This document shows positions 3,573 through 61,180 of a stretch of DNA of 64,000 nucleotides, in pieces. The notes under the pieces were generated by a model. That model did not search any database and was not told where the DNA came from. It saw nothing but the letters and a program-made list of their open reading frames with translations. The stretch lies in assembly GCF_900186995.1 (NCBI RefSeq), contig NZ_LT906463.1, positions 1 to 64,000 of the forward strand, written 5' to 3'. The position numbers and the translations under genes are program-made. The number at the start of each line of letters is the position of its first letter. The first letter of the stretch is position 1. Source of the DNA: Haemophilus pittmaniae. GTDB lineage: Bacteria; Pseudomonadota; Gammaproteobacteria; Enterobacterales; Pasteurellaceae.

Positions 3573-3635
3573 TCTAATAAAATCAATAACTTAGACATTA
3601 TTTTAGGAAAAACTTATATTTTACACAGGGCGTTT
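3573..3635 (+). repeat. IHF-site intergenic repeat, copy 1
   Basis: First of 14 related copies. The arms TCTAA and TTAGA flank the IHF consensus match AATCAATAACTTA (3581-3593). The conserved middle TTTTAGGAAAAACTT follows, and the copy ends in AGGGCGTTT. It sits between convergent recF and purL. Confidence 0.85.
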
Positions 3636-3712
3636 GGAAAACCTTCTCCCCCCCGACTCACCCAGTCTACATTCAGAAAAGTAAATGTGCCCACCTGTAA
3701 TCATTTATCCTC

Positions 3713-3742
3713 AATAAAAAAGCCGACTTAATGTCGGCTTTT
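3713..3742 (-). terminator. intrinsic terminator of purL, possibly bidirectional
   Basis: The stem AGCCGAC/GTCGGCT (3721-3727 and 3733-3739) has a 5-base loop. The A-run at 3716-3720 becomes a U-run on the minus strand, 20 bases past the purL stop. The T-run on the plus side is short, so termination of recF is weaker. Confidence 0.8.
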
Positions 3743-3760
3743 AGGCATAAATGACAATGT

Positions 3761-6700
3761 TTATTTCAAAGCAACTCTCGCATTTCTAAAAATTCGCATC
3801 CAAGCGCCGTCTTCAGACCAATCTTCCGGATACCAAGAGTTGCTCACTGCGCGGAATACGCGTTCCGGGTGTGGCATCATGGCAGCGATGCGGCCATCAA
3901 CGTTGGAAATCGCGGTGATCCCTAATACGGAGCCATTCGGGTTAGCCGGATAGGTTTCGGTCACATTCAAATAACTGTCCACATATTGACCAACGATCAA
4001 ATTTTGTGCCTGTAATGCGGCCAATTGTGCTGCATCCTTAAATTCTACACGACCTTCCCCATGGGATACTGCGATCGGCATATGCGAGCCGGCCATGCCG
4101 CTGAACCAAAGCGAGTTGGTGTCATTAATTTTCACCATTGCCGCACGGGCTTCAAAGCGTTCGGATTTATTACGCACGAAACGTGGCCAGTTTTCTGCAC
4201 CTGGGATAATTTCTGCAAGCGTAGAGATAAATTGACAGCCGTTACACACACCAAGAGAAAGCGTATTTTCATTCGCGAAGAATTGGCTAAATTGATCACG
4301 CAATTGCGGATTAAACAAAATCGATTTTGCCCAACCGCCGCCGGCACCTAATACGTCACCGTAAGAGAAACCACCACAGGCTACCATCGCATTGAAGTCA
4401 TTTAGGTTGTAACGACCCGCCATTAAATCACTCATATGTACATCGATTGCCGCAAAACCTGCGCGGTCAAAGGCAGCCGCCATTTCAACATGGCTATTAA
4501 CGCCCTGCTCACGCAATACAGCAACTTTCGGACGCACACCTTTCACAATATAAGGCGCGGCAATATCTTCATTCACATCATAACTTAAATGTGCAGATAG
4601 GCCTTTGTTGTTAGTCGCTTTTTTCGCAGCAAACTCTTGATCGGCACATTCCGGATTATCACGTAAACGTTGCATTTGATGGGTTAATTCAGACCAGATT
4701 GCGCGTAACTCGGAGCGTTTTTCGCTTAATAGTTTTTTATTGCCACGGGCAATTACAAATTGATCATCTGCAGTCACTGCACCCAATTCTTTGGTTAAAT
4801 GAATCAAATTGTGTGCTTTCAAGACATCACGTACCGCGCTCAGATCGTTTTCACGCACTTGGATCACGGCACCAAGCTCTTCATTGAATAACACCGCCAG
4901 ATTATCATCACCCAACGCGGAAATATCGACTTCCACGCCACAATGGCCGGCAAACGCCATTTCCGCCAAGGTGGTAATTAACCCGCCATCGGAACGGTCG
5001 TGATAGGCCAATAATTTACTCTCTGCCACTAAAGCCTGCATTGCATCGAAGAAATCTTTTAAGCTTTGTACATTCACTACATCGGCCGGTTTATCACCCA
5101 ATTGTTTATAGACTTGAGCCAGTGCGGTAGCCCCTAAACGATTGTGGCCTTCCCCCAAATCAATCAATAACAAACGGGACTCGCCTTTATCGGTACGCAA
5201 TTGTGGCGTTACAGTTTTACGTACATCTTCTACACGGGCAAAGGCTGAAATCACCAAAGAAAGCGGAGCGGTTACGGATTTCTTCTCACCATTCTCTTCC
5301 CAAGTAGTTTTCATTGACATTGAGTCTTTTCCCACCGGAATCGTCAATCCCAAGGTTGGACAAAGTTCTTCACCCACGGCCTTCACTGCTTCGTACAAAC
5401 CGGCATCCTCTCCGCCATGGCCGGCGGCTGACATCCAGTTAGCTGAAAGCTTAATGCGTTTAATATCGCCGATATTGGTCGCGGCGATATTGGTGATGGA
5501 CTCCGCTACCGCTAAACGCGCAGAAGCAGCAAAATCCAACAAGGCGACCGGTGCGCGCTCGCCCATCGACATCGCTTCACCATGATAGCTGTCAAGACTT
5601 GCCGTAGTCACCGCCACATCGGACACCGGAATTTGCCATGGGCCGACCATTTGGTCACGCGCCACCATACCGGTAACCGAACGGTCACCAATGGTGATGA
5701 GGAAAGTTTTTTCGGCAACCACCGGCAAACGTAACACGCGATGCAATGCATCCTTAATTTGTATGCCCTCTTGAGCCAATGGCGCATTCGTTACGGATTT
5801 TTTACTGACATCACGGGTCATTTTCGGCGTTTTACCCAATAACACATTCATCGGCAAATCAATCGGATTATTGTCGAAATGTGTGTCATGTAAGGTTAAG
5901 TGTTTTTCTTCGGTGGCTTCGCCAATAACCGCAAACGGCGCGCGCTCACGTTCACAGAGTGCGGTAAATAATGCGAGTTTTTCCGGTGCAACGGCTAACA
6001 CGTAGCGCTCTTGCGATTCGTTACACCAAATTTCTAGTGGCGACATACCTTTTTCATCACAAAGGATTGAACGCAAATCAAATTTACCGCCACGTTCACC
6101 ATCGTGCACCAATTCCGGCATCGCATTCGATAAACCGCCGGCGCCAACGTCATGGATAAATAAAATTGGGTTGTCATCACCTAGCTGCCAGCAACGGTCA
6201 ATCACCTCTTGGCAACGGCGTTCCATTTCCGGATTTTCCCGTTGTACGGAAGCAAAATCCAAATCCTCTTTGGATTTACCACTATCCATAGAAGAAGCGG
6301 CACCGCCCCCCAAGCCGATATTCATCGCCGGCCCACCCAATACGATCAATTTAGCGCCAACCGGAATTTCCCCTTTTTGCACATGTTCGGCACGAATATT
6401 GCCAATACCGCCAGCTAACATAATCGGTTTATGGTAACCACGCACTTCCTCACCGTTAAAACTATTTACTTTTTCTTCATAGGTTCGGAAATAGCCCAAT
6501 AACGCCGGACGACCAAATTCGTTATTAAACGCCGCGCCGCCCAATGGGCCTTCGATCATAATATCCAATGCTGAAGCAATCCGGCTTGGTTTGGAAAGCG
6601 GATTTTCCCAAGGTTGTTCAAAGTTTGGGATCACCAAGTTAGAAACGGAAAACCCCGTTAACCCGGCTTTTGGTTTAGCGCCACGGCCGGTTGCCCCTTC

Positions 6701-7654
6701 ATCACGAATTTCCCCACCAGAACCGGTCGCTGCGCCCGGGAATGGAGAAATTGCCGTCGGATGGTTATGGGTTTCCACTTTCATCAAAATATGTGCATCT
6801 TCTTGGTGATAACGGTATTGGCCGTCTTGATCGGCAAAGAAACGACCAACTTTGGAGCCTTCCATTACCGCGGCATTATCCTTATAGGCAGAAAGCACAA
6901 AATCCGGGGTTTTCTCAAAGGTATTTTTAATCATTTTAAACAGGGACTTATCCTGTTTTTCGCCGTCGATTATCCAATCAGCATTAAAGATTTTGTGACG
7001 GCAATGCTCGGAGTTGGCTTGGGCAAACATGTACAATTCGATATCGTGCGGGTTGCGCCCCAATTTAGTGAAGTTTTCCACCAAATAATCGATTTCATCC
7101 TCCGCTAAGGCAAGCCCCAATTCTACGTTGGCGGTCACTAGTGCGGCACGACCACCAGCTAAAACATCCACGGTTTTGAATGGTTTCGGATCTTGGTGAC
7201 GGAATAAAACATCCGCTTCAGCCGGCGTACGCACCACGGTTTCCATCATTCGATCATGCAACAGAGCACTTAATAAAGTGCTTTCCTGCTCGTTGAGCGC
7301 GCGGGTTAATTCAAAATAATAGGCTAAACCACGTTCGATACGTGCCACTTCGCTAAGGCCACAGTTATGGGCGATATCGGTCGCTTTGGAAGACCAAGAA
7401 GAAATCGTCCCGATACGCGGAATCACAATAAAACATTCCCCTTTAGCTTCATGCTCTGCCAAAGTCGGACCGTAGTGTAATAAGGCTTTTAGCTTGCTCT
7501 CCTGGTCTGTTGAAAACGCTTGCTCAAGTTCCACAAAATGCATGTATTCCGCATAAACGGATTGAACCGGTAACTGATGTTGTTGAAATTTTTGCATTAA
7601 AGCATTGATTCGGAATTCGGAAAGGGCCGGTGAGCCACGAAATGTTTGCAACAT
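3761..7654 (-). CDS. purL: phosphoribosylformylglycinamidine synthase
   Basis: PurL converts FGAR, glutamine and ATP to FGAM, the fourth step of purine synthesis. The 1297-residue protein is the large single-chain form (E. coli 1295). It carries an N-terminal linker domain, the PurM-like synthetase halves, and a C-terminal class I glutamine amidotransferase. The amidotransferase nucleophile lies in LGVCNGCQF near residue 1137; the His and Glu of its triad are in HPERVF (1262 and 1264). The start [12 protein letters not shown] is the normal N-terminus. Upstream lies a consensus PurR operator overlapping the likely promoter, so expression should fall when purines are plentiful. The gene stands alone between convergent recF and the PTS cluster. 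Confidence 0.98.
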
Positions 7655-7712
7655 AGGAGCAACCTTTTATTTTGAATGGAAATGAAAAAACGCGGGCATT
7701 ATAAAGGAAAAG

Positions 7713-7741
7713 ATAATAAAACGAAAACGTTTGCGTGCCTT
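7713..7741 (-). promoter_or_regulatory. PurR operator and purL promoter
   Basis: On the minus strand 7736-7721 reads ACGCAAACGTTTTCGT, the full 16-base PurR operator consensus of E. coli. A likely -10 box TATTAT lies just downstream (7718-7713), so bound repressor would cover the -35/-10 spacer. No strong -35 is visible. The operator lies about 70-80 bases before the purL start codon. Confidence 0.85.
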
Positions 7742-7805
7742 GTGTGGCGCAAAAAATAGCGTTTTTAAAGAGGCCATTTGACGAAATATTGGATTTTCAA
7801 ACCGA

Positions 7806-7869
7806 ACCTAATAAAATCAATGACTTAGGTGGCATTTTAGGAAAAACGTAAATTTTTGAGGGGGCGTTT
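7806..7869 (+). repeat. IHF-site intergenic repeat, copy 2
   Basis: The arms ACCTAA and TTAGGT bracket the IHF match AATCAATGACTTA. The middle ATTTTAGGAAAAAC and a terminal GGGGCGTTT follow. The copy lies between the purL promoter and the gene downstream of the mannose PTS. Confidence 0.85.
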
Positions 7870-7897
7870 TATCAGGACGGACAAGTGCCGTCCCGGC

Positions 7898-8281
7898 TTA
7901 ATTATCCGTTTGGGAGAGATGGGCTTTTGATAACGCTAATAAACGCGCCAATTCAGCTTTGCCTTTATCAGAAAGCACTTTGTTTTCCTCTTGCAATTGG
8001 CTAGCTCGCATCGCGATAAAACGTAAATAATCGGGATTACCGCTTTGTTTAAATTGGCTTTCCGCCTGTTGCATTTCCTGAAAGGCTTTATTAGTTTGGC
8101 TAATCAGAATTTTTTGCCCAAGCAACACTAGCAAGGCCGCCACCAATGCGGCTAGCGTGCCGTAACCTTGTGTCGGGTAATACAAGAGCCCTGCCAAAAT
8201 AAACAGCCCGGTCACCAAACGGGACGAATTTTTTACCCAGCCTTCGGCTGGTGGTGCTTGAATTAAATCTTTTAATTTCAT
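7898..8281 (-). CDS. small membrane protein behind the mannose PTS genes
   Basis: I do not recognise a named family. The 127-residue product has a short cytoplasmic start (MKLKDLIQAPPAEGW), two adjacent hydrophobic segments around residues 22-57, and a charged, probably helical C-terminal half rich in Gln, Glu and Lys. A longer frame opens at 8296, but those codons lie inside the preceding terminator hairpin, so the ATG at 8281 is preferred; no clear Shine-Dalgarno is visible for either. It follows manZ in the same direction but beyond an intrinsic terminator, so it would be expressed only by read-through or from its own promoter. Any link to sugar uptake is inference from position. Confidence 0.6.
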   Translation of the reverse strand: MKLKDLIQAPPAEGWVKNSSRLVTGLFILAGLLYYPTQGYGTLAALVAALLVLLGQKILISQTNKAFQEMQQAESQFKQSGNPDYLRFIAMRASQLQEENKVLSDKGKAELARLLALSKAHLSQTDN

Positions 8282-8284
8282 AAT

Positions 8285-8308
8285 AAAAAAGGGCAACCGA
8301 AGTTGCCC
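8285..8308 (-). terminator. intrinsic terminator after manZ
   Basis: On the minus strand GGGCAAC-TTCG-GTTGCCC is followed by six Ts (8290-8285). It is a compact 7-bp stem with a stable TTCG loop, 21 bases after the manZ stop, and it separates manXYZ from the small membrane protein gene. Confidence 0.88.
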
Positions 8309-8328
8309 TGTGCAAGCAAGAATATCGA

Positions 8329-9162
8329 TTAAGCAAGAATGCCGAAATAGTAACCTAAAATTCCCACGCCGAATAGCGCAAAAATAATGTACATTGCGTT
8401 AATTTTCTTACGCAATAAATACATACAAAGGAAAGTTAAGCCCAATGCGGCCATTCCTGGCAACAATTCGTCCAACACGCTTTGTACGGTGGTAACCACT
8501 TCACTACCTTGTTGGTTTACATAACGGGATAACTCCAACGGAATGTTGATCGTCGTCCATTTAGAAACCAACGCCCCCATCACAAAGAGACCGAGAATAG
8601 ACGCCCCCTGCGTAAGTTTTTGTAAACGGCCACCGCCCATATCGTTCACGATTTCAGTACCTTTTTCATAACCGTATTTGAAACCGTACCAACGAGTTAA
8701 AGCACGGCAGATATTGATACCGATGAAGAATAACAAAGGTCCGAGTAAACTACCGGTAATCGCCAGACCGGCCCCAAGTGCCGCTAATACTGGACGCAAG
8801 GTTCCCCAGAAAATCGGGTCACCAACCCCGGCTAATGGTCCCATTAGACCGACTTTAACCCCGCTGATTGCAGCATCGTCAATGTCTTTACCGTTAGCGC
8901 GTTCTTGTTCCATCGCAGCGGTAACCCCCATGATGGCCGACCCCACCCAAGGTTGGGTGTTAAAGAATTCCAAATGGCGTTTCAAGGCAGCCGCTTGGTC
9001 TTCTTTTTTGCTGTATAAGCGTTTGATCGCCGGAATCATCGATACGCAGAAACCCATTGACTGCATACGTTCGAAGTTGAATGAACCCAAAAGGAAGGTT
9101 GAGCGCCAGTAAGTGCTACGAATATCGCCTTTGGTTAAAGAGATTTTTTGTTGTTCGCTCAT
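8329..9162 (-). CDS. manZ: PTS mannose-family transporter subunit IID
   Basis: The IID membrane subunit pairs with IIC to move mannose, glucose or an amino sugar across the inner membrane while IIAB phosphorylates it. The 277-residue product (E. coli ManZ 283) has the family's soluble N-terminal part, the conserved stretch GPLAGVGDPIFWGTLRP and C-terminal hydrophobic helices ending LGYYFGILA. It starts 2 bases after manY ends and is the last of three adjacent genes transcribed together. Substrate cannot be assigned from sequence; mannose/glucose is the usual choice. Confidence 0.95.
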   Translation of the reverse strand: MSEQQKISLTKGDIRSTYWRSTFLLGSFNFERMQSMGFCVSMIPAIKRLYSKKEDQAAALKRHLEFFNTQPWVGSAIMGVTAAMEQERANGKDIDDAAISGVKVGLMGPLAGVGDPIFWGTLRPVLAALGAGLAITGSLLGPLLFFIGINICRALTRWYGFKYGYEKGTEIVNDMGGGRLQKLTQGASILGLFVMGALVSKWTTINIPLELSRYVNQQGSEVVTTVQSVLDELLPGMAALGLTFLCMYLLRKKINAMYIIFALFGVGILGYYFGILA

Positions 9163-9164
9163 AA

Positions 9165-9962: not shown

Positions 9963-9979
9963 AAAAATTTACCTCTTAA

Positions 9980-12415: not shown

Positions 12416-12430
12416 ATTTTTACAACAACC

Positions 12431-12492
12431 ATAATGAAATCAATGACTTATAATCAATTTTAGGAAAAACTTTGGTTTTCGCAGGGGCGTTT
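12431..12492 (+). repeat. IHF-site intergenic repeat, copy 3
   Basis: This copy has a degenerate left arm. The IHF match AATCAATGACTTA is intact, and TTTTAGGAAAAACTTT plus a terminal GGGGCGTTT follow. From the middle onward it is nearly identical to copy 4, including the terminator behind it. Confidence 0.85.
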
Positions 12493-16823: not shown

Positions 16824-16843
16824 CAACCACATACTTTTCATCC

Positions 16844-16909
16844 ACCTCTAATAAAATCAATGACTTAGAGTTGATTTTAGGAAAAACTTCGGTTTTCGCA
16901 GGGGCGTTT
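16844..16909 (+). repeat. IHF-site intergenic repeat, copy 4
   Basis: The arms CTCTAA and TTAGAG bracket the IHF match AATCAATGACTTA. TTTTAGGAAAAACTTC and a terminal GGGGCGTTT follow. Its right part and the terminator behind it are a near copy of the cassette upstream of argC. Confidence 0.88.
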
Positions 16910-20522: not shown

Positions 20523-20587
20523 AAACGCCCCCTCAAAAAGAAACGCTTTTATTAAAACAAGATTTAACTCATTGATTTTATTGACAT
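20523..20587 (-). repeat. IHF-site intergenic repeat, copy 5
   Basis: On the minus strand the copy has a degenerate left arm, the IHF match AATCAATGAGTTA and a terminal GGGGCGTTT. It belongs to the minus-strand variant with G before the TTA. A separate inverted repeat AAGTGGA/TCCACTT (20596-20616) follows. Confidence 0.78.
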
Positions 20588-20764
20588 TACTTTAAAAGTG
20601 GAGATTTTATCCACTTACCCTATTCAGTCCTATTTTTTCACTGCAATAGAGAGAATTTTTCTGGTAAAAACAATGAAATATCGCTAAAGTGTCGTCATTT
20701 TCCCACTTTGTCAGTCGGAATTATTTAGTGTGAATGAGCGCTTTTACATCAAAAAGGAAAAATT

Positions 20765-22614: not shown

Positions 22615-22680
22615 AAACGCCCCGTTAAAAATCGGAGTTTTCTCCGAAGAACAAGCTAACCCATTGATTTTATTAGCATT
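22615..22680 (-). repeat. IHF-site intergenic repeat, copy 6
   Basis: On the minus strand the arms GCTAA and TTAGC bracket the IHF match AATCAATGGGTTA. The copy ends in GGGGCGTTT. It sits between convergent genes. Confidence 0.85.
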
Positions 22681-22682
22681 GG

Positions 22683-22717
22683 TTTAAAAAATAAAAAACA
22701 CGGCATGATGCCGTGTT
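22683..22717 (-). terminator. intrinsic terminator of the sucrose-type PTS gene
   Basis: On the minus strand the stem AACACGGCAT/ATGCCGTGTT is followed by a long T-rich run (22698-22683). Confidence 0.9.
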
Positions 22718-24157: not shown

Positions 24158-24257
24158 AGAGTTGTCTCCTAGAGAGTTGAAGTTAAACGGGCGGATTGTA
24201 CCCAAAAAGTGGAATAATAACTAGAATAAAAATCTGTCTTCACATTTTTTAATAAAT

Positions 24258-24320
24258 ATTAATAAAATCAATAGCTTACAATCTATTTTTTGGAAAAAAT
24301 AGGCTTTTGAATGGGCGTTT
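24258..24320 (+). repeat. IHF-site intergenic repeat, copy 7
   Basis: A diverged copy: the arms are poor, but the IHF match AATCAATAGCTTA and a terminal GGGCGTTT are kept. It lies between the PTS promoter region and tRNA-Leu. Confidence 0.72.
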
Positions 24321-27998: not shown

Positions 27999-28063
27999 AA
28001 ACGCCCCATGAAAAATAGAAGTTTTTGCCAAAATAAATGCTAACCCATTGATTTTATTAGAGT
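27999..28063 (-). repeat. IHF-site intergenic repeat, copy 8
   Basis: On the minus strand CTAA and TTAG flank the IHF match AATCAATGGGTTA. GCAAAAACTTC and a terminal GGGGCGTTT follow. It lies in the divergent gap between ybaB and the phosphoesterase gene. Confidence 0.83.
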
Positions 28064-28133
28064 TGATTGAAAAATTGGTTTCTCCGGGGTATTTCCCTAT
28101 AATGGCGCTCTTTGTTGACTACCGGGATCCCCC

Positions 28134-30042: not shown

Positions 30043-30108
30043 AAACGCCCCTATAAAAAAAGATTTTTTCTTTAAAACATAAGTTAACCCATTGATTTTA
30101 TTAGCAGT
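30043..30108 (-). repeat. IHF-site intergenic repeat, copy 9
   Basis: On the minus strand CTAATAAAATCAAT leads into the IHF match AATCAATGGGTTA. The copy ends in GGGGCGTTT. It lies in the divergent gap between the DUF554 gene and nrfA. Confidence 0.82.
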
Positions 30109-30211
30109 AACTTAAAATTAAGAAAACCATCTAATTTAGGTACATATTGAGTCTCTCCACTGGGAAAAGAGATGCTATTTTTTTCACCTTAAGCATAGCA
30201 GTATTAACAAC

Positions 30212-34405: not shown

Positions 34406-34427
34406 TCTAAAATAAAGTTTTTTAGCC

Positions 34428-34493
34428 ATATCTAATAAAATCAATAACTTAGATATTATTTTAGATAAAACTTATTTTTTCCTGGGTGCGTTT
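34428..34493 (+). repeat. IHF-site intergenic repeat, copy 10
   Basis: The perfect 8-bp arms ATATCTAA/TTAGATAT bracket the IHF match AATCAATAACTTA. The right end is GGGTGCGTTT. It lies just upstream of nrfE, 40 bases before its ATG. Confidence 0.85.
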
Positions 34494-44508: not shown

Positions 44509-44954
44509 TGGAGAAGGTAAAAATTAGCTTTTGGGAGTTTCTATTTAAGATCGGTGATGATTATTTGATGTTTTTACGTAATTTAACGCCAGCCGTTCTT
44601 TTTTTCTCCCTTGCACTTTTTATGTTTGGCAAACTACGCTGGGAATATTTTGATTTAGACCAAGCCATTTTGCTCTTTTTCTCCTTCTCATCAGCATTTA
44701 TCGCCTTTAGTGTGATGCTGATTAATGTTGTGAGTTTTAGTAAAAAAATGCTGAAATCACTCAACGAGTTGCACCACAATGCTCCCGTTGATGCCAATGG
44801 TTGGACGATCTTTAAACAAATCTGGCAACAAACTAATGCCAAGCAATTGGTCTTTTTTCTAAGTGTCAATTTAGCAGCAATATTGCTAGTAATTGTTTAC
44901 GGAATGAAATACGCCTTTAACTTCTACAGTGCCGTGGCAGCACTTGGCGATTAA
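44508..44954 (+). CDS. small inner-membrane protein of unknown function
   Basis: The 148-residue protein has three hydrophobic segments (about 25-44, 52-74 and 119-137) and no recognised motif. It overlaps the lipoprotein stop codon by one base and is the fourth gene of a tight run beginning with the nitrobindin-like gene. An IHF-site repeat follows. Confidence 0.7.
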   Translation: MEKVKISFWEFLFKIGDDYLMFLRNLTPAVLFFSLALFMFGKLRWEYFDLDQAILLFFSFSSAFIAFSVMLINVVSFSKKMLKSLNELHHNAPVDANGWTIFKQIWQQTNAKQLVFFLSVNLAAILLVIVYGMKYAFNFYSAVAALGD

Positions 44955-44968
44955 TTTTTTGACCAACA

Positions 44969-45030
44969 CTAATAAAATCAATAACTTACCTATTGTTTTT
45001 GGAAAAACTTTTAAAAGCAGTATAGCGTTT
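44969..45030 (+). repeat. IHF-site intergenic repeat, copy 11
   Basis: CTAA and TTA flank the IHF match AATCAATAACTTA. TTTTGGAAAAACTTTT follows, and the end is degenerate (TATAGCGTTT). The ribosome site of the next gene begins 4 bases later. Confidence 0.8.
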
Positions 45031-45756: not shown

Positions 45757-47022
45757 ATGAAAAAACTTATCCGAAACTTAATGGTGTTGCTAGTTGGCTT
45801 TAGTACGACAAATTTTCTTTGTGCGACAGAAAATCCCCAAAATGCACCGGGTGCAGATTATGAACTTGAGAAAATATTAATCTTCAGTCGCCATGGATTA
45901 CGCTCGCCAGTGGAAAAAGACCCACAAGAGATGGCGAAATATTCTCCGCATGCATGGGCAAAATGGGATGTGCCATCAGGTTATCTCACGGCAAAAGGGA
46001 CGGTGTTAGAAACCTATTTCGGCCAATATTTAGGGCAATGGCTTGCGGATAAAGGATTATTAACGACAGATCGTTGTGCATCGGGCGAGGGTATTTTTGC
46101 TTATGCGAATGGTGTGCAACGCACAATTGCAACAGGGCAAGCCATTGTGGCGGGAGCTTTTGCGGGCTGCAATGTTCAACTGCAACATCACGGTAAAATT
46201 GGTTCAGAAAAAGATCCAATTTTCAACACGCAGGCGCATAATCCAAGTCAAGCCTTGATTGAATCTGCAAAAAATAACGTTGATTTAACCGCTTTACAGC
46301 AAAAATTAGCGCCAAATTATGCGCTATTAAGTGAAATCATCGATTATAAAAATTCACCAAACTGCCTGCAAAAAGGCGAGTGTGATTTAGGTGGAAAAGT
46401 CGGTGAATACAGTATTAAAGACGGCAAGTCGGTCAAGATTACTGGTTCTATCAGCACCGGGAAGAAGATTGTCAGTGCATTATTGCTTGCGCATTATGTG
46501 GGCAAGCCTGATTCAGAAATCGCAAACGGTCGTGTGAATAGCCAAGAAAAATGGCGTGCAATTAACGAAATTAAAAACGAATATTACCGCACGTTATTTA
46601 AAAACAACGAAGCGTTGGCACAAAATGCCTCATATCCGTTATTAGCATTTATTCAGCAACAACTAAATAGTGAAAACAAAATTAACTTGTTGGTTGGACA
46701 CGATTCTAATATCGTCGCTCTGCTTGCAGCACTAGGCGTTGAGCCTTATGAGTTGAATGATTCTTTGGAAAATATCCCAATCGGTGGCAAGTTACTATTT
46801 GAAGTGTGGAAACACAAACCAAGTGGCAAACTCAAATTTAAGCTGGATTATGTTTATCAATCCACTGAACAGTTGATTAACATCACGCCATTAAGTTTAT
46901 CGACACCACCAAACCAAACAGCATTAACCCTCAAAGGCTGTGAGAAAGATGAACATGGTTTTTGTGATTATGAGCGGTTTCAACGGGTATTGAGTAAGAG
47001 TATTGAAAACGGCAAAAAATAG
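45757..47022 (+). CDS. agp: periplasmic histidine acid phosphatase
   Basis: The 421-residue protein has a signal peptide (ending near residue 23), the phosphohistidine motif RHGLRSP (45-51, His46) and the proton-donor pair HD at 315-316. It belongs to the glucose-1-phosphatase/phytase branch of the histidine acid phosphatases; the exact substrate is uncertain. Its last 24 codons lie inside a 286-bp tandem duplication, so a copy of its 3' end recurs downstream. Confidence 0.85.
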   Translation: MKKLIRNLMVLLVGFSTTNFLCATENPQNAPGADYELEKILIFSRHGLRSPVEKDPQEMAKYSPHAWAKWDVPSGYLTAKGTVLETYFGQYLGQWLADKGLLTTDRCASGEGIFAYANGVQRTIATGQAIVAGAFAGCNVQLQHHGKIGSEKDPIFNTQAHNPSQALIESAKNNVDLTALQQKLAPNYALLSEIIDYKNSPNCLQKGECDLGGKVGEYSIKDGKSVKITGSISTGKKIVSALLLAHYVGKPDSEIANGRVNSQEKWRAINEIKNEYYRTLFKNNEALAQNASYPLLAFIQQQLNSENKINLLVGHDSNIVALLAALGVEPYELNDSLENIPIGGKLLFEVWKHKPSGKLKFKLDYVYQSTEQLINITPLSLSTPPNQTALTLKGCEKDEHGFCDYERFQRVLSKSIENGKK

Positions 47023-47521
47023 CGTTCATGCAACCCTATGAAAAATACTTAAAAGAGAATTCGCAGAAATTGCGAGCGGATCAAACGGATGCGGAAAGAA
47101 AGCTATGGCAACGCATCAATCGAGATCAATTATTAGGATTTCGATTTAATCGACAAAAGCCTCTTTTAAGTTATATCGTTGATTTTTATTGTGCGAAAGC
47201 AAAGCTGATTATCGAATTAGACGGTAGTCAGCATTTGAACATGGTTTTTGTGATTATGAGCGGTTTCAACGGGTATTGAGTAAGAGTATTGAAAACGGCA
47301 AAAAATAGCGTTCATGCAACCCTATGAAAAATACTTAAAAGAGAATTCGCAGAAATTGCGAGCGGATCAAACGGATGCGGAAAGAAAGCTATGGCAACGC
47401 ATCAATCGAGATCAATTATTAGGATTTCGATTTAATCGACAAAAGCCTCTTTTAAGTTATATCGTTGATTTTTATTGTGCGAAAGCAAAGCTGATTATCG
47501 AATTAGACGGTAGTCAGCATT
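46950..47521 (+). repeat. 286-bp tandem duplication
   Basis: 46950-47235 recurs as 47236-47521 with no difference that I found. The unit covers the end of the acid phosphatase gene, the gap, and the first 69 codons of the DUF559 gene. The unit length is not a multiple of three, so the upstream DUF559 copy runs into a foreign frame and stops early. Confidence 0.93.
47028..47279 (+). pseudogene. truncated DUF559 nuclease copy
   Basis: The first 69 residues are identical to the intact gene at 47314. After GSQH the frame enters the duplicated phosphatase 3' sequence and ends at 83 residues (LNMVFVIMSGFNGY). The C-terminal third of the nuclease domain is missing, though the predicted Asp52 and Glu63-Asp65 are kept. 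Loss of function is expected. Confidence 0.85.
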
Positions 47522-47679: not shown

Positions 47680-48161
47680 ATATGAGCGTTAAGTAGCTCC
47701 GCCAAATCTCCCCTACCCCTCTTTGCTAAAGAGGGGAATTCTTGGGTAAATTGATAGTAGTGGACTATTTATATTTTGAGAATATGAGGACTGATTGAGT
47801 ATGAGCGTTAAGTAGCTCTACCAAATCTCCCCCTACCCCTCTTTGCTAAAGAGGGGGGATTCATGAGTAAATTGATAGTAACTGACTCATTTACATTTTA
47901 ATTTCAATAAAGATTAAATTATCTGCTTTAAAAAAACGTTAAAGTAAAACGTAGATATTTAACTCTGCAAAGATCAAATACCCTCTTTGCTAAAGATGGG
48001 GATTCTTGAGTAAATTGATTGTAACTGGCTCATTTACATTTTAATTTCAATAAAGATTAAATTATCTGCTTTCAAAAAGCTTTAAAGTAGAACATAAATA
48101 TTTAACTTTCCAAAGATCCAATCCCCTCTTTAGCAAAGAGGGGGAGGGGAGATTTGGCAGA
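47660..48161. repeat. palindrome array with inverted ends
   Basis: Four copies of a CCTCTTTGCTAAAGAGG hairpin lie at 47716-47736, 47836-47856, about 47980-48001 (degenerate) and 48123-48143 (inverted). The first two sit in direct repeats of about 119-120 bp starting GAGAATRT, and the last two in direct repeats of 143 bp. The outer ends are inverted: GCCAAATCTCCCCTACCCC (from 47701) and its near reverse complement ending at 48158, so the block looks like a composite miniature element. It contains no gene and fills most of the gap before glyS. Confidence 0.85.
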
Positions 48162-52352: not shown

Positions 52353-52384
52353 CGGCGCAAATGAACTTGCGCCGCATTTTTACT
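52353..52384 (+). terminator. intrinsic terminator of kefC
   Basis: The stem CGGCGCAA/TTGCGCCG (52353-52360 and 52367-52374) has a 6-base loop and is followed by CATTTTT. Confidence 0.85.
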
Positions 52385-52390
52385 TTATCT

Positions 52391-52452
52391 CTAATAAAAT
52401 CAATGACTTAGCATCTATTTTAGAGAAAACTTTGAAAACCGCAATAGCGTTT
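52391..52452 (+). repeat. IHF-site intergenic repeat, copy 12
   Basis: CTAA and TTAG flank the IHF match AATCAATGACTTA. TTTTAGAGAAAACTTT follows, and the end is AATAGCGTTT. Its last base is also the last base of the stop codon of the transporter gene on the other strand. Confidence 0.82.
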
Positions 52453-53967: not shown

Positions 53968-53981
53968 CCTATTTTGTTCAT

Positions 53982-55437: not shown

Positions 55438-55488
55438 TTTCTTTCTGCTTTTGTTAAAATAAGCGCGTATTCTACACGAAAAAGCACA

Positions 55489-56217
55489 ATGATGAACGAT
55501 TTACCCCTTTCTCTTTCCCCTATTGCCCGCATTCACACACCCTATCGGGAAAAATTTTCGGTTCCCCGACAAGCTAATTTAGTTGAAGATGGTTGCGGTA
55601 TTATCGAATTACTCCCGCCTTATAACGTACCGGAAGCAGTGCGTGGACTAGAACAATTTAGCCATTTATGGTTGATCTTCCAATTTGATCGCATCGAAAC
55701 CGGTAAATGGTCACCGACCGTACGTCCACCCCGTTTAGGCGGTAATCAACGGGTTGGCGTTTTTGCCAGTCGGGCCACCCACCGACCAAATCCATTAGGC
55801 CTATCTAAAGTTGCACTAAAGAGTATCGAATGCAAACAAGGCAAAGTATTACTGCATCTTGGGCCGGTGGATTTAGTCGATGGCACTCCGATTTTTGATA
55901 TTAAACCTTATTTAACCTATGCCGATTGCGAACCCGACGCCCAATGTGGATTTGCTCAAGATAAACCCAATGCTCCCTTGAACGTGGAATTTAGTGAGCG
56001 CGCATTATCCCAACTTGCCCGCCTACAAACACAGGAACCGCATCTGATGCGCTTTATCCGAGATGTATTGGCACAGGATCCGCGCCCAGCCTATCAACAT
56101 GGCAAACAGGATGAGCGGGAATACGGTATTTGGTTGGGCGCATGGAATATCAAATGGCGCCTCAAAACAGGGGAAACCACAGAGGCCGAAGTGCTCTATT
56201 TAGAGGAACGAAGATAA
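55489..56217 (+). CDS. trmO: tRNA (t6A37)-N6-methyltransferase TrmO
   Basis: TrmO (TsaA, YaeB) methylates t6A at position 37 of threonine tRNAs. The 242-residue protein has the family core [19 protein letters not shown] and [11 protein letters not shown]. The frame is open from 55405, inside menA's start region, but the ATGATG at 55489/55492 fits the family N-terminus. It is divergent from menA. An IHF-site repeat follows its stop and supplies one arm of its terminator. Confidence 0.92.
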
Positions 56218-56235
56218 TTAAATGCATTTTTAAAC

Positions 56236-56302
56236 CACCTCTAATAAAATCAATAACTTAGAGGTGATTTTAACAAAAACTTGCTATTTCAAGGGGGCGT
56301 TT
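56236..56302 (+). repeat. IHF-site intergenic repeat, copy 13
   Basis: This copy has the best stem of the family: perfect 9-bp arms CACCTCTAA/TTAGAGGTG around the IHF match AATCAATAACTTA. It ends in GGGGCGTTT, whose last bases are also part of the next terminator stem. Confidence 0.9.
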
Positions 56303-56338
56303 GTTAAGCCTAAAAAGAGGCCAACAAACGCTTTTTTA
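56297..56338 (+). terminator. intrinsic terminator of trmO, built partly from the repeat
   Basis: GCGTTTGTT (56297-56305) pairs with AACAAACGC (56323-56331). There is an inner GCCT/AGGC stem, and six Ts follow. The left arm begins inside the repeat's terminal box. Confidence 0.85.
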
Positions 56339-57391
56339 TTCAGATTCATCCGGTAAAGCGTTCAGCACAGCTTTTACCAAGGTCGCCAATGGGATCGCGA
56401 AGAACACGCCCCAAAAACCCCATAGCCCACCGAAGATTAATACGGAGATAATAATCGCCAACGGATGTAAATTAACGACCTCAGAGAATAAATAAGGCAC
56501 TAATAAATTGCCATCCAACAATTGACTGATTGCGAAAGCCAAAATGATGTAGCCGAAGGTTGGACTCAAACCAAATTGAAAAAGCGCCACTAAGGCGACT
56601 GGAATAGTGACCAATACCGCGCCCACATAAGGCACTAACACAGAAATACCGACAGCCACCGCCAGTAATAACGGGTAATTGAGACCGAAGAAAAGAAAAA
56701 TCAAATAAGTCACCACGCCGACAACTAAAATCTCCAGCACTTTACCGTGAATGTAATTTGAGATTTGTTGCTGCATTTCCTTCCACACTTGCGATGCCAA
56801 AGTACGGTTACGTGGTAAAAAACGACTCACACTAGTCAATAACTCGCCCTTGTCCTTAAGCATAAAGAACATCATCAAAGGTACTAAAAATGCATAAATA
56901 CCGAAGGACACCAAATTCATTAGAGAAGATAGGGATAATTTTACTGCTGACTCACCAGCGCCTAGAATCTTGGTACGAGCCGCGGAGAAAAAGGCATCGA
57001 CCATCGAATAATCAATAATTTCCGGATAATGTTCCGGCAGTTGTAACAACCATTCATTGAATAAGTTAAACATCGCCGGCAAATCACTTAACAATGAAAG
57101 CATTTGATTCCATAAGGTCGGAACCAATCCTAAAAAGACTAACAGCGCAATACTTAAAAAGCCGCCAAACACCACAATAGTAGCTAACATGCGGGGGAAT
57201 TTGAGTTTTTCGGTTAAAAAAGCTATCGGTATTTCCAATAAATAGGCCAACACAATGGCGATTAATAGAGGCGCAATAATGTCACTAAAAAAATAAATCG
57301 CTACAAAGCCAAACAACAAAATCGCCAATAATCCCATCGCCTGCGGATCGCTTAAACGACGTTGATACCAGCTTTTCAACATTTCAAACAT
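56336..57391 (-). CDS. perM: AI-2E family permease PerM
   Basis: The 351-residue membrane protein of the AI-2 exporter superfamily has seven or eight helices, the central charged cytosolic stretch, and the conserved ending [21 protein letters not shown]. coli PerM has 353 residues and lies next to the ArsC-like yfgD, as here. Its transported substrate is unknown; quorum-signal export is shown only for the relative TqsA. The frame extends to 57439, but the ATG at 57391 ([10 protein letters not shown]) is chosen because the extra residues overlap the next promoter. Confidence 0.87.
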
Positions 57392-57465
57392 AATGCTTTT
57401 CCAAGAGAAATTTGCGCCATTATAAGTTAAAATTCCCACTGATTATAGCGAACAGGAGAAATTCT

Positions 57466-57816
57466 ATGACGATTCGGATTTATCATAATCCACGTTGTTC
57501 CAAAAGCCGGGAAACCTTAGCATTATTGGAACAACAAGGCATCGAAGTACAAATCGAGACTTATCTACAAAAACACTACAGCGTTACAGAGCTACAGGCA
57601 TTAGCGGATAAATTGGGAATCACCGATATTCGAGCAATGATGCGCTGCAAAGATGAGTTATTTAAACAACTACAATTAGATCGTCCGGAAATCACCAATG
57701 CTCAGTTGTTAGCCGCCTTAAGCGAGCACTCTGCCCTATTGGAACGGCCAATTGTAGTAAATGGCGACAAAGCACGGATTGGCCGACCACCACAATGCGT
57801 GCTGGAAATTTTGTGA
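57466..57816 (+). CDS. yfgD: ArsC-family reductase, YfgD type
   Basis: The 116-residue protein has the ArsC fold with active-site Cys11 in NPRCSKSRET and the conserved RPIVVNGDKARIGRP. It resembles YfgD, which sits beside perM in E. coli; arsenate reductase activity is only inferred, and no ars operon is present. AGGAG lies 9 bases before the ATG at 57466. arfA follows in the same direction after 50 bases. Confidence 0.88.
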   Translation: MTIRIYHNPRCSKSRETLALLEQQGIEVQIETYLQKHYSVTELQALADKLGITDIRAMMRCKDELFKQLQLDRPEITNAQLLAALSEHSALLERPIVVNGDKARIGRPPQCVLEIL

Positions 57817-57866
57817 TTTATCCTTATAATGTGCGGCGTGAATTTTCACGTCGCAAGAGGTAAAAG

Positions 57867-58073
57867 ATGGCAAAAAAAACAAACGGCGCTTATCAACATC
57901 GCAAGGGTGCGATTCAAGATAATGCGATTATGGCGCTATTAAGCGATACATTATTTCGCCCGCGTATTGAGCGAAAACGGAAAGGAAAAGGCAGCTATCA
58001 GCGAAAAGCCAAACATGTGGGATATGGATTTGAAAAGCCCGATTATAAATCTTCTATTTTAGAGGCTTTATAA
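57867..58073 (+). CDS. arfA: alternative ribosome-rescue factor A
   Basis: ArfA enters stalled ribosomes on stop-less mRNAs and recruits RF2, backing up tmRNA. The 68-residue protein has the core [35 protein letters not shown] and the basic KAKHVGYG. From codon 58 onward the coding sequence is the left arm of a 12-bp hairpin, and the stop codon lies in the right arm. In other Proteobacteria such a hairpin in the arfA message leads to truncated stop-less mRNA, so the protein is made only when tmRNA is lacking. The same logic is likely here. Confidence 0.92.
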
Positions 58074-58086
58074 TCGGGTTTTTATT
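58038..58086 (+). terminator. hairpin across the arfA stop codon
   Basis: CCCGATTATAAA (58038-58049) pairs perfectly with TTTATAATCGGG (58067-58078) over a 17-base loop, and TTTTTATTAT follows. The stop codon TAA (58071-58073) is within the right arm. It is both an intrinsic terminator and a candidate RNase III target. Confidence 0.88.
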
Positions 58087-58118
58087 ATCAGACAAAAAAT
58101 AAAATACTAGGAGTAAAT

Positions 58119-58409
58119 ATGACAAAGCACGTCGAACTATTTAATAATACTTGGAATGTACGGATCAGTGATCCCGGTGAAGAAGGCGCGCAAAGCCACT
58201 TCTTTGAAACCGTTTATTTAATCTTAACCGCCCATTTGGAAGAAACCATCCGTTATGAGTTTGTCCGTCGAGTAGAAGACCAAGTAAAAATTAAGCGTGA
58301 CTTTACGGATTTGCAGGAATTATTTAAATTTTTAGGGGATTATTTGGATCCCGTGTCCTTAGGTTTGTTGGGCGTTAAAATTGGCAATTTAGGTGTCACC
58401 ATCGAATAA
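58119..58409 (+). CDS. conserved-looking small protein of unknown function
   Basis: I do not recognise the family. The 96-residue product is soluble, acidic and free of Cys, with mixed helix and strand character (HFFETVYLILTAHLEETIRYE, a 20-residue stretch read as helix without its last residue, then DFTDLQELFKFLGDYLD). The start ATG has TAGGAG upstream and a terminator follows, so it looks like a real gene. It is transcribed in the same direction as arfA but after arfA's terminator. Confidence 0.7.
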   Translation: MTKHVELFNNTWNVRISDPGEEGAQSHFFETVYLILTAHLEETIRYEFVRRVEDQVKIKRDFTDLQELFKFLGDYLDPVSLGLLGVKIGNLGVTIE

Positions 58410-58420
58410 ATCAGATAAAA

Positions 58421-58458
58421 AATGCGGCTTAGGAATATCCCTAAGCCGCATTTCTTTT
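58421..58458. terminator. bidirectional terminator between the small gene and bamC
   Basis: The stem AATGCGGCTTAGG/CCTAAGCCGCATT (58421-58433 and 58440-58452) has T-rich tails on both strands. It lies between convergent genes. Confidence 0.92.
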
Positions 58459-58467
58459 ATGTTGCTA

Positions 58468-59469
58468 TTAATGGGCTAACAATTGTGCCAAAGCATTATA
58501 AACTGCTTTAGCCGCATCTTCATTTAATGCTTTGCCATCTTCATCACTTAACACTGCAGCACTTTGCTTACCAACTGCGGAAATCTGTAAATGATAAGTG
58601 CCCTTCTCCAAATCAGGACGACTCACACCAAAACGCAACCATTCTGATTTATCCAAGGGTTTATATTTCAATTCACGTTGACCACGACCTGCCACTTCAG
58701 ACACTGTATCAAAGCCTAATTGCGGTAATGCCGAAGCCAATTTACTCCAAGCCTGAGCAAATGTGGCATCCATTGCCAACGCTAAACGACCATTATTATC
58801 GGTAATCAAACCGGATTGGAATGCACCTACGACTGTCGAACTTAAATCCTGTTGCTGCTTGTTATAGGCTTCAGTAAGGGCCGCCACTAAACGGTTTAAG
58901 CGATCGGAAGTATAACGTTGTTTAGCCGCCACATCCGGAGTAAAAATAACACCATCACGACGCATTTGTTGCACGGAGACAGCCAAAGCACTCGCACCAT
59001 TAGCATTTATCTGTTCAATTTTATAGCGGATTTCCGTACCGGCAGAATCATCCGCACGACCGGTTGGAGCCCAATCAGAGAGCAAAACCAAGCCATTGAT
59101 ATTGGAGTTAATGCCATCTTCTTTTAATAAACGTTGTACCTGCTGTAAGTTATATACCGCGGCCTGTTGGTCGGAATACACGATCAACGCACGCTCACCA
59201 TCAAACTGGGTTAGGGAATTTTTAATAATTGCCAATGGTGTTGAAGGCGGACGAATATCTACCGTAGCTCCTTTTTTAATTTCCGCCGGCAATTCATAAA
59301 GATTAGATTGACGCGGTAAAGTCACTCCACCGCTATTTAATGGAGAAAAACCGGGTACATCTTCAGCATATTTCTGATAACTATCATTAGCCGTTTGTAG
59401 TTTCTCCGGATCGCTTGAGCAACCAGTCAATACAGCAGCAATAACAATACCTAATAATAATTTTTTCAT
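58468..59469 (-). CDS. bamC: outer membrane assembly lipoprotein BamC
   Basis: BamC (NlpB) is a lipoprotein of the BAM complex that inserts beta-barrel proteins. The 333-residue precursor has the lipobox LTGC (Cys17), an unstructured segment to about residue 90, and two helix-grip domains. It lies downstream of dapA, the order also found in E. coli. Hap, in this window, would be a client of the BAM complex. Confidence 0.93.
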   Translation of the reverse strand: MKKLLLGIVIAAVLTGCSSDPEKLQTANDSYQKYAEDVPGFSPLNSGGVTLPRQSNLYELPAEIKKGATVDIRPPSTPLAIIKNSLTQFDGERALIVYSDQQAAVYNLQQVQRLLKEDGINSNINGLVLLSDWAPTGRADDSAGTEIRYKIEQINANGASALAVSVQQMRRDGVIFTPDVAAKQRYTSDRLNRLVAALTEAYNKQQQDLSSTVVGAFQSGLITDNNGRLALAMDATFAQAWSKLASALPQLGFDTVSEVAGRGQRELKYKPLDKSEWLRFGVSRPDLEKGTYHLQISAVGKQSAAVLSDEDGKALNEDAAKAVYNALAQLLAH

Positions 59470-59565
59470 TCCCTATCCTTCATGCGTAATAGTATTTATA
59501 AAATAGACCGCGTTTTGACAAAAAACATCACAAAAAGTTTAAAGGGGCTACTGCCCCTTCATCAA

Positions 59566-60462
59566 TTAAATTAAACCGGCGATTTTTAATGCTTCTTCTA
59601 CTTTTACCTGAGCACCTTCGCTGAGTACAGTTAATGGTAAACGTAAATTCGGTACAGGAATTAAACCTAAACGATAAGCAGCCCATTTCACCGGGATCGG
59701 ATTACCTTCCAAGAATAAATCATGGTGTAGACGGGCTAAACGTTGGTTAATCACCTCAGCCTCGGCAAATTTACCATTACGCGCCAAATGACACATCTCT
59801 GTCATATCCTTCGCCGCTAAGTTATTGGTCACAGAGATCACCCCTTCAGCACCTAATTGCATCGCCTGCAAACCGGTAGCATCATCACCGCTTAACACGA
59901 TAAATTCATTGCCAGCTAATTGTTTAATTTTTTGAATACGGGACACATCACCGGTAGCTTCTTTGATACCCACAATATTGCTGATTTCCGCCAAACGGGC
60001 TACGGTTTCCGGTTGCATATCGCTACCGGTACGGCCCGGTACGTTATAAAGCAATTGCGGTAAATCAGTACATTCGGCAATGGCTTTAAAATGTTGGTAC
60101 ATCCCCTCTTGGGTTGGTTTATTGTAGTAAGGCACCACAGAGAGGCAGCCCGCAACACCGCTATCATGTAATAATTTCGTCATGATAATTGCTTCACTGG
60201 TTGCATTTGCGCCAGCACCGGCAATCACCGGAATACGTCCTTTAGCAAATTCCACCGTCTTTTTCACTACCTTCACATTTTCATCGATACTCAATGTTGC
60301 AGACTCGCCAGTAGTTCCTACAGATACAATTGCATCGGTACCGGCTTCAATATGGAAATTCACCAACTTCTCAAGTGTTTGGAAATCAACTTCACCGTGA
60401 CCATCCATTGGTGTAATAAGCGCAACGATACTGCCTGAAAATAAAGGATAAGACGTGGACAT
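59566..60462 (-). CDS. dapA: 4-hydroxy-tetrahydrodipicolinate synthase
   Basis: DapA condenses pyruvate with aspartate semialdehyde in lysine and diaminopimelate synthesis. The 298-residue TIM-barrel protein has Tyr139 ([10 protein letters not shown]) and the Schiff-base Lys167 in [10 protein letters not shown]. Both are offset by six from E. coli numbering, in line with a slightly longer N-terminus ([12 protein letters not shown]). It is divergent from bcp and precedes bamC with a 96-base gap. Confidence 0.97.
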
Positions 60463-60566
60463 AAAAACCTCCGAGGTTAATTATTGGGGAATATTGGAAA
60501 TACCGACAATGGTCGCTAAAATACCCCTACTTTGCAAATTATTTTTTCTATTTCAAAGGATTTTTT

Positions 60567-61031
60567 ATGAAAACATTGCAAGCCGGCGACAATGCGCCGC
60601 AATTCACCTTACTCAATCAAGACAATCAAACTATTTCCTTGGCGGATTTTCACGGACAAAAAGTGCTCGTTTATTTTTATCCGAAAGCCCTCACCCCGGG
60701 ATGTACAACACAAGCCTGTGGTTTGCGCGACAGCAAAAGCGAATTGGAAAAACTAGGCGTAGTCATTTTAGGCATTAGCCCTGACAGCCCGAAAAAACTG
60801 GCGCAATTCAAAGAAAAAAAAGAGCTAAATTTCATGCTATTAGCGGATGAAACCCATCAAGTGGCTGAGCAATTCGGCGTTTGGGGAGAAAAGAAATTCA
60901 TGGGCAAAACCTATGACGGTATCCATCGTATTAGCTTTCTCATTGATGAACAGGGAAAAATCCTCAAGGTTTTCGATAAATTCAAAACCGGTGAACACCA
61001 CAAAATCGTCCTTGAATATTTGCAAGGCTAA
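60567..61031 (+). CDS. bcp: thioredoxin-dependent thiol peroxidase
   Basis: Bcp is a peroxiredoxin that reduces hydrogen peroxide and alkyl hydroperoxides. The 154-residue protein has the peroxidatic Cys46 and resolving Cys51 in TPGCTTQACGLRD, the pattern of the E. coli-type Bcp. It is divergent from dapA, a common arrangement (E. coli has gcvR between them). Confidence 0.95.
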   Translation: MKTLQAGDNAPQFTLLNQDNQTISLADFHGQKVLVYFYPKALTPGCTTQACGLRDSKSELEKLGVVILGISPDSPKKLAQFKEKKELNFMLLADETHQVAEQFGVWGEKKFMGKTYDGIHRISFLIDEQGKILKVFDKFKTGEHHKIVLEYLQG

Positions 61032-61034
61032 AAA

Positions 61035-61060
61035 AAAGGAACCTCTGAGTTCCTTTTCTT
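61035..61060 (+). terminator. intrinsic terminator of bcp
   Basis: The stem AAGGAAC/GTTCCTT has a 6-base loop and is followed by TTCTT. Confidence 0.8.
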
Positions 61061-61117
61061 GTTGGCTAGGCGAATTAAACCAATATTTCGCCATCAATAA
61101 TAGCATCTTAAATCAAC

Positions 61118-61180
61118 CCTAATAAAATCAATGACTTAGCAATTATTTTCAAGAAAACTTTTATTTTTGAAGGGGCGTTT
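61118..61180 (+). repeat. IHF-site intergenic repeat, copy 14
   Basis: CTAA and TTAG flank the IHF match AATCAATGACTTA. ATTTTCAAGAAAACTT and a terminal AGGGGCGTTT follow. It lies between convergent bcp and the DUF1294 gene; no gene is seen in the rest of that gap. Confidence 0.85.

What the first reader, a model, noticed from the sequence alone, without database searches (positions are those of the whole stretch)
3573..61180. A 14-copy intergenic repeat family in which every copy carries an exact IHF-site consensus
Seen directly: copies at 3573, 7806, 12431, 16844, 20523, 22615, 24258, 27999, 30043, 34428, 44969, 52391, 56236 and 61118, each about 60-68 bp, all essentially between genes. Each contains AATCAANNNNTTA, an exact match to the IHF consensus WATCAANNNNTTR, preceded by an A/T tract, and ends in a GGGGCGTTT-like box; most also keep an AAAAACTT-like middle. 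E. coli RIP/RIB elements and Neisseria Correia elements are known repeats with IHF sites. This looks like an independent Pasteurellaceae example, about one copy per 4.6 kb. It could bend DNA at operon ends, organise the nucleoid, or be a non-autonomous mobile element.
Basis: partly seen in the sequence, partly recalled or inferred. Interest (0 to 1): 0.88.

Follow-up and report, generated by a model that had tools for sequence, protein, structure and literature searches.

The report
Bent-DNA elements at gene ends
One bacterial genome carries hundreds of copies of a 77-letter DNA element near the ends of its genes, nearly all with a consensus binding site for the DNA-bending protein IHF, and because old copies have kept their key letters intact they probably do something useful for the chromosome, though what exactly is still a guess.

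Summary
The unit is 77 bp; its core matches 364 places in this 2.18-Mb genome at two or fewer mismatches (control 6). A model of it finds no copy in 10 congeners. In 140 genomes of the family it finds one other full copy, in DNA 93-94% identical to this genome's, so probably transferred. In a 1,264-kb sample 199 copies were found: 6 overlap called ORFs, the rest are intergenic. Copies occupy 81 of 137 convergent, 94 of 493 tandem and 9 of 138 divergent gaps, without orientation preference in tandem gaps. Gaps with a copy are longer than in a congener (median +60 against 0 bp), so copies are insertions. No hairpin, terminal inverted repeat or general target duplication was found. Variable columns are saturated and follow replication-strand skew, so copies look old; yet 33 columns stay 96% identical and solo halves are almost absent. 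A/T tracts phased at about 10.75 bp extend into neighbouring genes; at upstream third codon positions an element-free congener lacks the phasing. Best reading: a formerly mobile, IHF-centred, wrapped nucleoprotein site kept by selection at transcription ends. IHF binding, any partner protein and the purpose are inferred, not shown.

The parts
3559..3635 (+). copy 1, after recF
   Evidence: recF by TIGR00611
7793..7869 (+). copy 2
12416..12492 (+). copy 3 (one core mismatch)
16833..16909 (+). copy 4, after an argD-like gene
   Evidence: gene
20523..20599 (-). copy 5 (one core mismatch), after purB
   Evidence: gene
22615..22691 (-). copy 6
24244..24320 (+). copy 7, beside a tRNA-Leu gene
27999..28075 (-). 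copy 8, divergent gap beside a YbaB/EbfC gene; the homologous gap is 89 bp shorter in 4 of 4 congeners measured
30043..30119 (-). copy 9
34417..34493 (+). copy 10, after nrfD; 4 of 4 congeners have an uptake signal sequence there and are 38-44 bp shorter over the aligned region
44954..45030 (+). copy 11 (box 6 of 9), fills an 83-bp gap between two genes
52376..52452 (+). copy 12 (box 6 of 9), convergent gap
56226..56302 (+). copy 13, convergent gap; 79 bp shorter in 4 of 4 congeners measured by matched flanks
61104..61180 (+). copy 14

Best explanation
The element is a DNA-level, IHF-centred nucleoprotein site. IHF bends the invariant AAAATCAAT(NNN)TTA core. The DNA on both sides, with A/T tracts about one helical turn apart, is then wrapped or folded back, and at least one more protein reads the GGGGCGTTT box and the TTTT/AAAA blocks. 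The element arose in this lineage as insertions of roughly 80 bp at gene ends, next to DNA whose A/T was already phased. The copies have since been kept by selection, most likely because they manage DNA topology or folding where transcription stops, above all between convergent genes. Shown: copy number, insertion relative to a congener, gene-end location, block conservation with saturated variable columns, phased flanks. Inferred: IHF binding, the second protein, wrapping, selection, the topological purpose, past mobility.
For: Orientation is neutral in tandem gaps (48 and 48) and convergent gaps are favoured: 81 of 137 convergent, 94 of 493 tandem, 9 of 138 divergent gaps hold a copy. Over 191 copies the IHF consensus is intact in 190; 33 conserved columns are 0.959 identical and 109 copies have no deviation in them. 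The 21 variable columns sit at chance identity (0.374 against 0.377 expected) and carry the local replication-strand skew (0.277 leading, -0.010 lagging, 0 of 5,000 label permutations; flanks 0.102 and -0.117), so the copies seem to have aged in place. Half-element scans, which do not need the core, find 1 solo left half among 206 and 1 solo right half among 202. Insertion: gap difference to congener G073 has median +60 bp for 31 gaps with a copy and 0 for 194 without. Phasing over 191 copies: upstream amplitude 0.060 against a null 99% point of 0.015, downstream 0.028 against 0.013. In upstream coding flanks G073 shares the phasing at codon positions 1-2 but not at position 3 (0.0455 in G000, 0.0048 in G073, difference 95% interval 0.014 to 0.073).
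Against: No binding data exist. The position-3 result could also come from insertion into curved DNA if the copies are younger than third-position saturation; only the apparent age argues against that. Downstream position 3 is not significant (interval -0.007 to 0.063). In E. coli, gyrase sites are negatively associated with IHF sites (PMC6379681, passages), and mirror symmetry about the GGGGCG box was not found. 56 of 137 convergent gaps have no copy. 7 of 31 gaps with a copy are shorter than in G073. HU/IHF gene number does not differ from the 10 congeners (3 each). The core was used to find the copies, so conservation of its 16 letters is partly ascertained.
Confidence: 0.5

Rival explanations
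1. A plain non-autonomous mobile repeat (MITE- or REP-like) that uses IHF for transposition, has no host function and turns over.
For: Copies are insertions relative to G073. One full copy lies in another genus. The upstream site was already phased in the element-free congener, as expected for target choice by curvature. Local tandem arrays exist, e.g. four copies 93-94 bp apart near 1,299 kb.
Against: No terminal inverted repeats in the consensus. Flank direct repeats exceed the re-paired control only through the 10 longest cases, all of the TGTCACATT type. Almost no solo halves. Variable columns saturated with local strand skew. The Y1 transposase gene is also in two congeners without the element. 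The other-genus copy is best explained by transfer of the whole gene region.
Confidence: 0.25
2. Specifically a strong DNA gyrase site that removes positive supercoils between convergent genes, helped by IHF.
For: Phased A/T flanks of period 10.75 bp upstream, the same period as the flanks of the E. coli gyrase motif (PMC6379681, passages). Convergent enrichment. Positive supercoils gather between convergent genes (PMC8360656, passages). REP sequences bind gyrase and IHF (PMC1525189, passages).
Against: The E. coli motif is symmetric about the cleavage site; no symmetry about the GGGGCG box was found, and the best centres were near 6.5 and -3.5 with correlation 0.42. IHF and gyrase sites are negatively associated in E. 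coli. I did not have the gyrase matrix, so the site was not scored.
Confidence: 0.15
3. A new DNA uptake signal replacing the family's USS.
For: USS density is low in this genome: 111 per Mb against 670 in G073. At 7 of 15 syntenic element gaps G073 has a USS, against 23 of 93 gaps without an element.
Against: The copies are insertions, whereas USS arise by substitution (PMC1626085, passages). They are almost confined to intergenic DNA, while 55 of 96 USS cores in this genome lie in called genes. USS have two A/T tracts, not long phased flanks.
Confidence: 0.04
4. An RNA-level element (3' UTR structure or terminator).
For: Location near gene ends; a few copies extend into terminator hairpins.
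Against: No strand preference in tandem gaps, 48 and 48. RNAalifold predicts 0 pairs on 64 copies. Mutual information is mostly between near-neighbour columns. Terminators using the box: 6 of 135 against 4.25 by re-pairing. No Rfam match at the copies at gathering thresholds.
Confidence: 0.03

Closest known systems
REP/BIME repeats, including the RIB/RIP class with IHF sites (E. coli)
   Same: Intergenic, hundreds of copies, gene ends and convergent gaps; REP bind IHF and gyrase (PMC1525189, passages). RIB/RIP as a class is recalled.
   Different: No palindrome or conserved stem here; one 77-bp asymmetric unit; no element-specific RAYT-type transposase found.
Neisseria Correia elements (CREE/NEMIS)
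   Same: Small intergenic repeats; the 155-bp form has an IHF site that binds IHF in vitro (PMC2229807, passages).
   Different: Correia elements have 24-bp terminal inverted repeats and target duplications; neither was found here (consensus).
Acidovorax ebreus GCTTAT(N)5AAGCG motif
   Same: 114 copies, 107 of them intergenic: 44 convergent, 4 divergent, 59 co-oriented, close to genes, function unknown (PMC5217627, passages). The distribution is very like the one here.
   Different: A much shorter spaced pair in another class; no IHF core reported in the passages seen.
Pasteurellaceae uptake signal sequences
   Same: Genome-wide repeats with A/T tracts in the same family.
   Different: 9-bp core, made by substitution, also in genes.

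Membership tests
IHF binding site | Match to WATCAANNNNTTR | tested here: met
   14 of 14 window copies; 190 of 191 sampled copies. The consensus itself is recalled.
IHF binding site | Bound and bent by IHF | not testable with these tools
   Needs gel shift or ChIP-seq.
REP/BIME (RIB/RIP) | Conserved palindrome or stem-loop | tested here: not met
   0 pairs on 64 copies; mutual information mostly between near-neighbour columns.
REP/BIME (RIB/RIP) | Dispersed mainly by a dedicated REP-associated Y1 transposase | tested here: inconclusive
   One PF01797 gene in G000, with like genes in two congeners that lack the element; it was not classified further.
Correia/MITE | Terminal inverted repeats | tested here: not met
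   Ends ATTTTTAAA and GGGGCGTTT are not inverted copies (consensus, read by eye).
Correia/MITE | Target-site duplication | tested here: not met
   Direct repeats in 40-bp flanks of 135 copies: 10 of length 9 or more against about 3.3 by re-pairing, all 10 of the TGTCACATT type. Duplications could have decayed with age.
Pasteurellaceae USS | AAGTGCGGT or ACAAGCGGT core, arising by substitution | tested here: not met
   Different core; insertions of tens of bp.
Gyrase wrapping site | Phased A/T flanks of about 10.75 bp | tested here: met
Gyrase wrapping site | Pattern symmetric about a central cleavage site | tested here: not met
Known structured RNA | Match to an Rfam family | tested here: not met
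   Window matches were only a tRNA and AsdA, at gathering thresholds.

The most novel reading that the evidence does not exclude
A lineage-specific chromosome-architecture system: some 340 IHF-nucleated wrapped complexes (scaled from 199 in 58% of the genome), sited at the ends of transcription units and in more than half of convergent gaps, so important that they constrain synonymous codons of neighbouring genes. About a tenth of the copies carry paired TGTCACATTT boxes 96-97 bp apart, nine helical turns, as for a protein-closed DNA loop with the IHF bend between.
Probability: 0.3. Interest if true: 0.82.

Novelty: new variant of a known kind. Interest (0 to 1): 0.62.

Why it matters
Bacterial intergenic repeats with IHF sites have been known for decades, but whether they serve the chromosome is unsettled. 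Here copies can be aged from their variable columns and compared with element-free relatives, and the data point to selection on DNA shape that may reach into neighbouring coding sequence. That makes function directly testable in one organism with hundreds of replicate sites, and offers a natural setting for asking what is needed between convergent genes.

Tried and rejected
Stem-loop: some window copies look like CACCTC...GAGGTG hairpins, but there is no covariation over the family. Coding repeat: an open frame (NKINDL...) was noticed by eye and dropped because copies lie between genes in both orientations; no codon test was run. Terminator: 6 of 135 against 4.25 re-paired. Replication-polar signal: a modest bias only, 73 leading and 118 lagging (P 0.0014); an early association of core variants with strand is covered by the skew result. 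Plasmids and phages: no full match, only 28-30 bp partial hits in one plasmid and two phages. An exact 21-mer scan of named genomes gave 26 stretches; the model finds mainly the core in them (best 29.2 bits over positions 15-54 of 81) and no full element. Weak partial model hits in 36 further family genomes (all at 25.6 bits or less) were taken as chance. The first spaced pattern found nothing because my spacing was wrong. Literature: searches listed nothing naming this element; subscription journals are mostly not held.
Full report
WHAT WAS CHECKED. The 14 copies exist as described. The genome that holds the window (G000, 2,181,355 bases, one contig, unnamed) has 250 exact cores and 364 at two or fewer mismatches, with 0 and 6 for the reversed pattern. 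The genome is Pasteurellaceae-like by its Hin-type uptake signal (96 in 864 kb against 15 for the reversed word). Its size and G+C remind me of Haemophilus pittmaniae, but that is recalled and no call established it.

SAMPLE. It gave 220 core hits at two or fewer mismatches; 199 have the 3' box (6 of 9 letters or better) at spacing 51-53, and 191 at exactly 52. The 21 without such a box were dropped. In the first 864-kb sample 11 core hits scored below 6 of 9 for the box; three of these (189,238; 333,865; 1,189,634) lie within about 70 bp of a full copy and look like core fragments. Alignment work uses the 191.

ANATOMY. Consensus ATTTTTAAAnCAACnCTAATAAAATCAATGACTTAGnTnTnATTTTnGnAAAAACTTTnAnTTTCnAnGGGGCGTTT, 77 bp, 90.5 bits. 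Conserved blocks alternate with near-random columns. One block is AAAA or TTTT in either polarity (columns 44-47), as if shape were read. There is no conserved base pairing. Spacing is rigid: 191 of 199 at 52.

PLACE. My ORF caller stands in for annotation. 6 of 199 copies overlap a called ORF by more than 20 bp. Of the 192 others with both neighbours, 90 lie in convergent gaps, 96 in tandem gaps (48 in each orientation) and 6 in divergent gaps. Counted by gap, 81 of 137 convergent, 94 of 493 tandem and 9 of 138 divergent gaps hold a copy (it uses wider margins, hence 9 and not 6). Orientation to replication, with origin near 0.58 Mb and terminus near 1.64 Mb by GC skew: 73 leading, 118 lagging.

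DISTRIBUTION. A sequence model of 64 copies found, in 140 genomes of the family (stricter filters), no match at E 0.001 in the 10 congeners, one full copy in G070 (65.6 bits) and weak partial hits of 25.6 bits or less in others; 38 genomes had some match, G000 and G070 included. Exact cores: 0 or 1 per congener, at most 8 elsewhere, in G086. The G070 copy sits between a hisD-like and a hisC-like gene (my reading of the translations; no family search was run) in DNA 93-94% identical to G000, while G070's own genus-mates show 70-79% over the parts that match. This points to transfer of the region. In G000 that gap instead holds a 391-codon ORF and none of the listed element hits.

INSERTION. At copy 56226 four congeners measured by matched flanks are 79 bp shorter. 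At copy 27999 four of four are 89 bp shorter. At copy 34417 the congeners have an uptake signal in the gap and are 38-44 bp shorter over the aligned region. Systematically, against congener G073 (1,200 kb), 31 syntenic gaps with one copy differ by median +60 bp (quartiles 29 and 103; 7 of 31 negative) and 194 without (gap at least 30) by 0 (quartiles -16 and 12), Mann-Whitney P 1e-5. DNA identity to congeners is 73-75% over the main gene matches in one 7-kb region and 69-93% in the longer matches of another, so exact junctions cannot be read.

AGE AND CONSTRAINT. Pairwise identity at 21 variable columns is 0.374 against 0.377 expected from column composition, with no tree-like excess except one tandem array. 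The same columns are G-rich in leading-strand copies (skew 0.277) and not in lagging ones (-0.010), like the flanks (0.102 and -0.117), with 0 of 5,000 permutations as large. Copies therefore seem to have sat in place long enough to reach local composition. Yet the 33 conserved columns are 0.959 identical, 109 of 191 copies have no deviation and 58 have one. Half-element scans that do not depend on the core found 1 solo left half of 206 and 1 solo right half of 202; the reversed control gave 0 and G073 one solo right half. Column classes were chosen from the same data and the half-models were trained on these copies, so I rely on the lack of decayed copies and on the skew rather than on the contrast itself.

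PHASED FLANKS. Outside the 77 bp, A/T content oscillates in register with the element: upstream period 10.75 bp, downstream about 10 bp (amplitudes for 191 copies 0.060 and 0.028, null 99% points 0.015 and 0.013). Farther out it is weak (P 0.015 and 0.058). It persists in coding flanks. At orthologous coding positions G073, without the element, shows it upstream (0.045, 0 of 1,000 shifts) but not downstream (0.008, P 0.62). Split by codon position upstream: positions 1 and 2 are alike in both species; position 3 is phased in G000 (0.0455 with ortholog, 0.0677 over all coding flanks) and not in G073 (0.0048), difference interval 0.014 to 0.073. Downstream position 3 points the same way but is not significant (-0.007 to 0.063). 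So the site was chosen, or survived, where A/T was already phased, and phasing at synonymous sites was added or retained in G000. If copies were young this could be target choice alone; the age evidence is what favours selection.

A SUBSET WITH EXTRA BOXES. TGTCACATTT occurs 37 times in the genome. Of 24 in the sample, 21 lie beside a full copy and one more beside a copy with a poor box, at -30 to -34 or +63 to +64. 18 of 191 copies carry such a box on at least one side, and their variable columns are no more alike than others (0.341 against 0.379). Six exact pairs are 96-97 bp apart, about nine helical turns. AATGTCACATT is nearly palindromic. A loop closed by a regulator over the IHF bend is a natural guess, untested.

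MECHANISM. My reading is an IHF-bent, wrapped complex with a second sequence reader at the GGGGCG box, kept for DNA topology or folding at transcription ends. Positive supercoils gather between convergent genes (PMC8360656, passages) and gyrase wraps DNA with 10.75-bp phased flanks (PMC6379681, passages). But gyrase-like mirror symmetry was not found, and IHF and gyrase sites avoid each other in E. coli, so gyrase is only one candidate. HU/IHF-family genes number three here and in each of 10 congeners.

COMPARISON AND NOVELTY. It works like, but is not built like, REP/RIP or Correia repeats (membership table). A motif in Acidovorax ebreus has a closely similar gene-end distribution and no known function (PMC5217627, passages), which hints at a wider unexplained class. 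Literature searches listed nothing that names this element.

Noticed in passing
whole genome (sample 864 kb; later 1,264 kb): Uptake signal AAGTGCGGT is about six times rarer than in congener G073 (111 against 670 per Mb; 130 in 1,264 kb against 833 in 1,200 kb). This lineage may have lost or changed uptake specificity.
   Followed up: partly
G000 about 977416-980170 (beside L194): 95 copies of GGTGCTACAGG inside one long ORF of about 2,144 codons (975610-982042), a large repetitive protein.
   Followed up: no
window 46950-47521 and 47837-48145: Exact tandem duplication of 286 bp, and a 143-bp tandem repeat of 2.2 copies at 89%.
   Followed up: no
window 472-552, - strand: Rfam match to AsdA, antisense RNA of dnaA mRNA, although GC skew puts the origin near 0.58 Mb.
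   Followed up: no
G000 about 1119084-1120335 (L242, L246): A 391-codon ORF between hisD-like and hisC-like genes where the G070 relative has the element.
   Followed up: no
G086, six places including C1:1869625 and C6:9852: A different repeat sharing TAATAAAATCAATTACTTA, six equal partial model hits of 21.3 bits.
   Followed up: no
L031, L040, L035, L045: The exact 21-mer core occurs in very similar contexts in two Herbaspirillum genomes and in a Burkholderiales and a Comamonas MAG; not explained.
   Followed up: no
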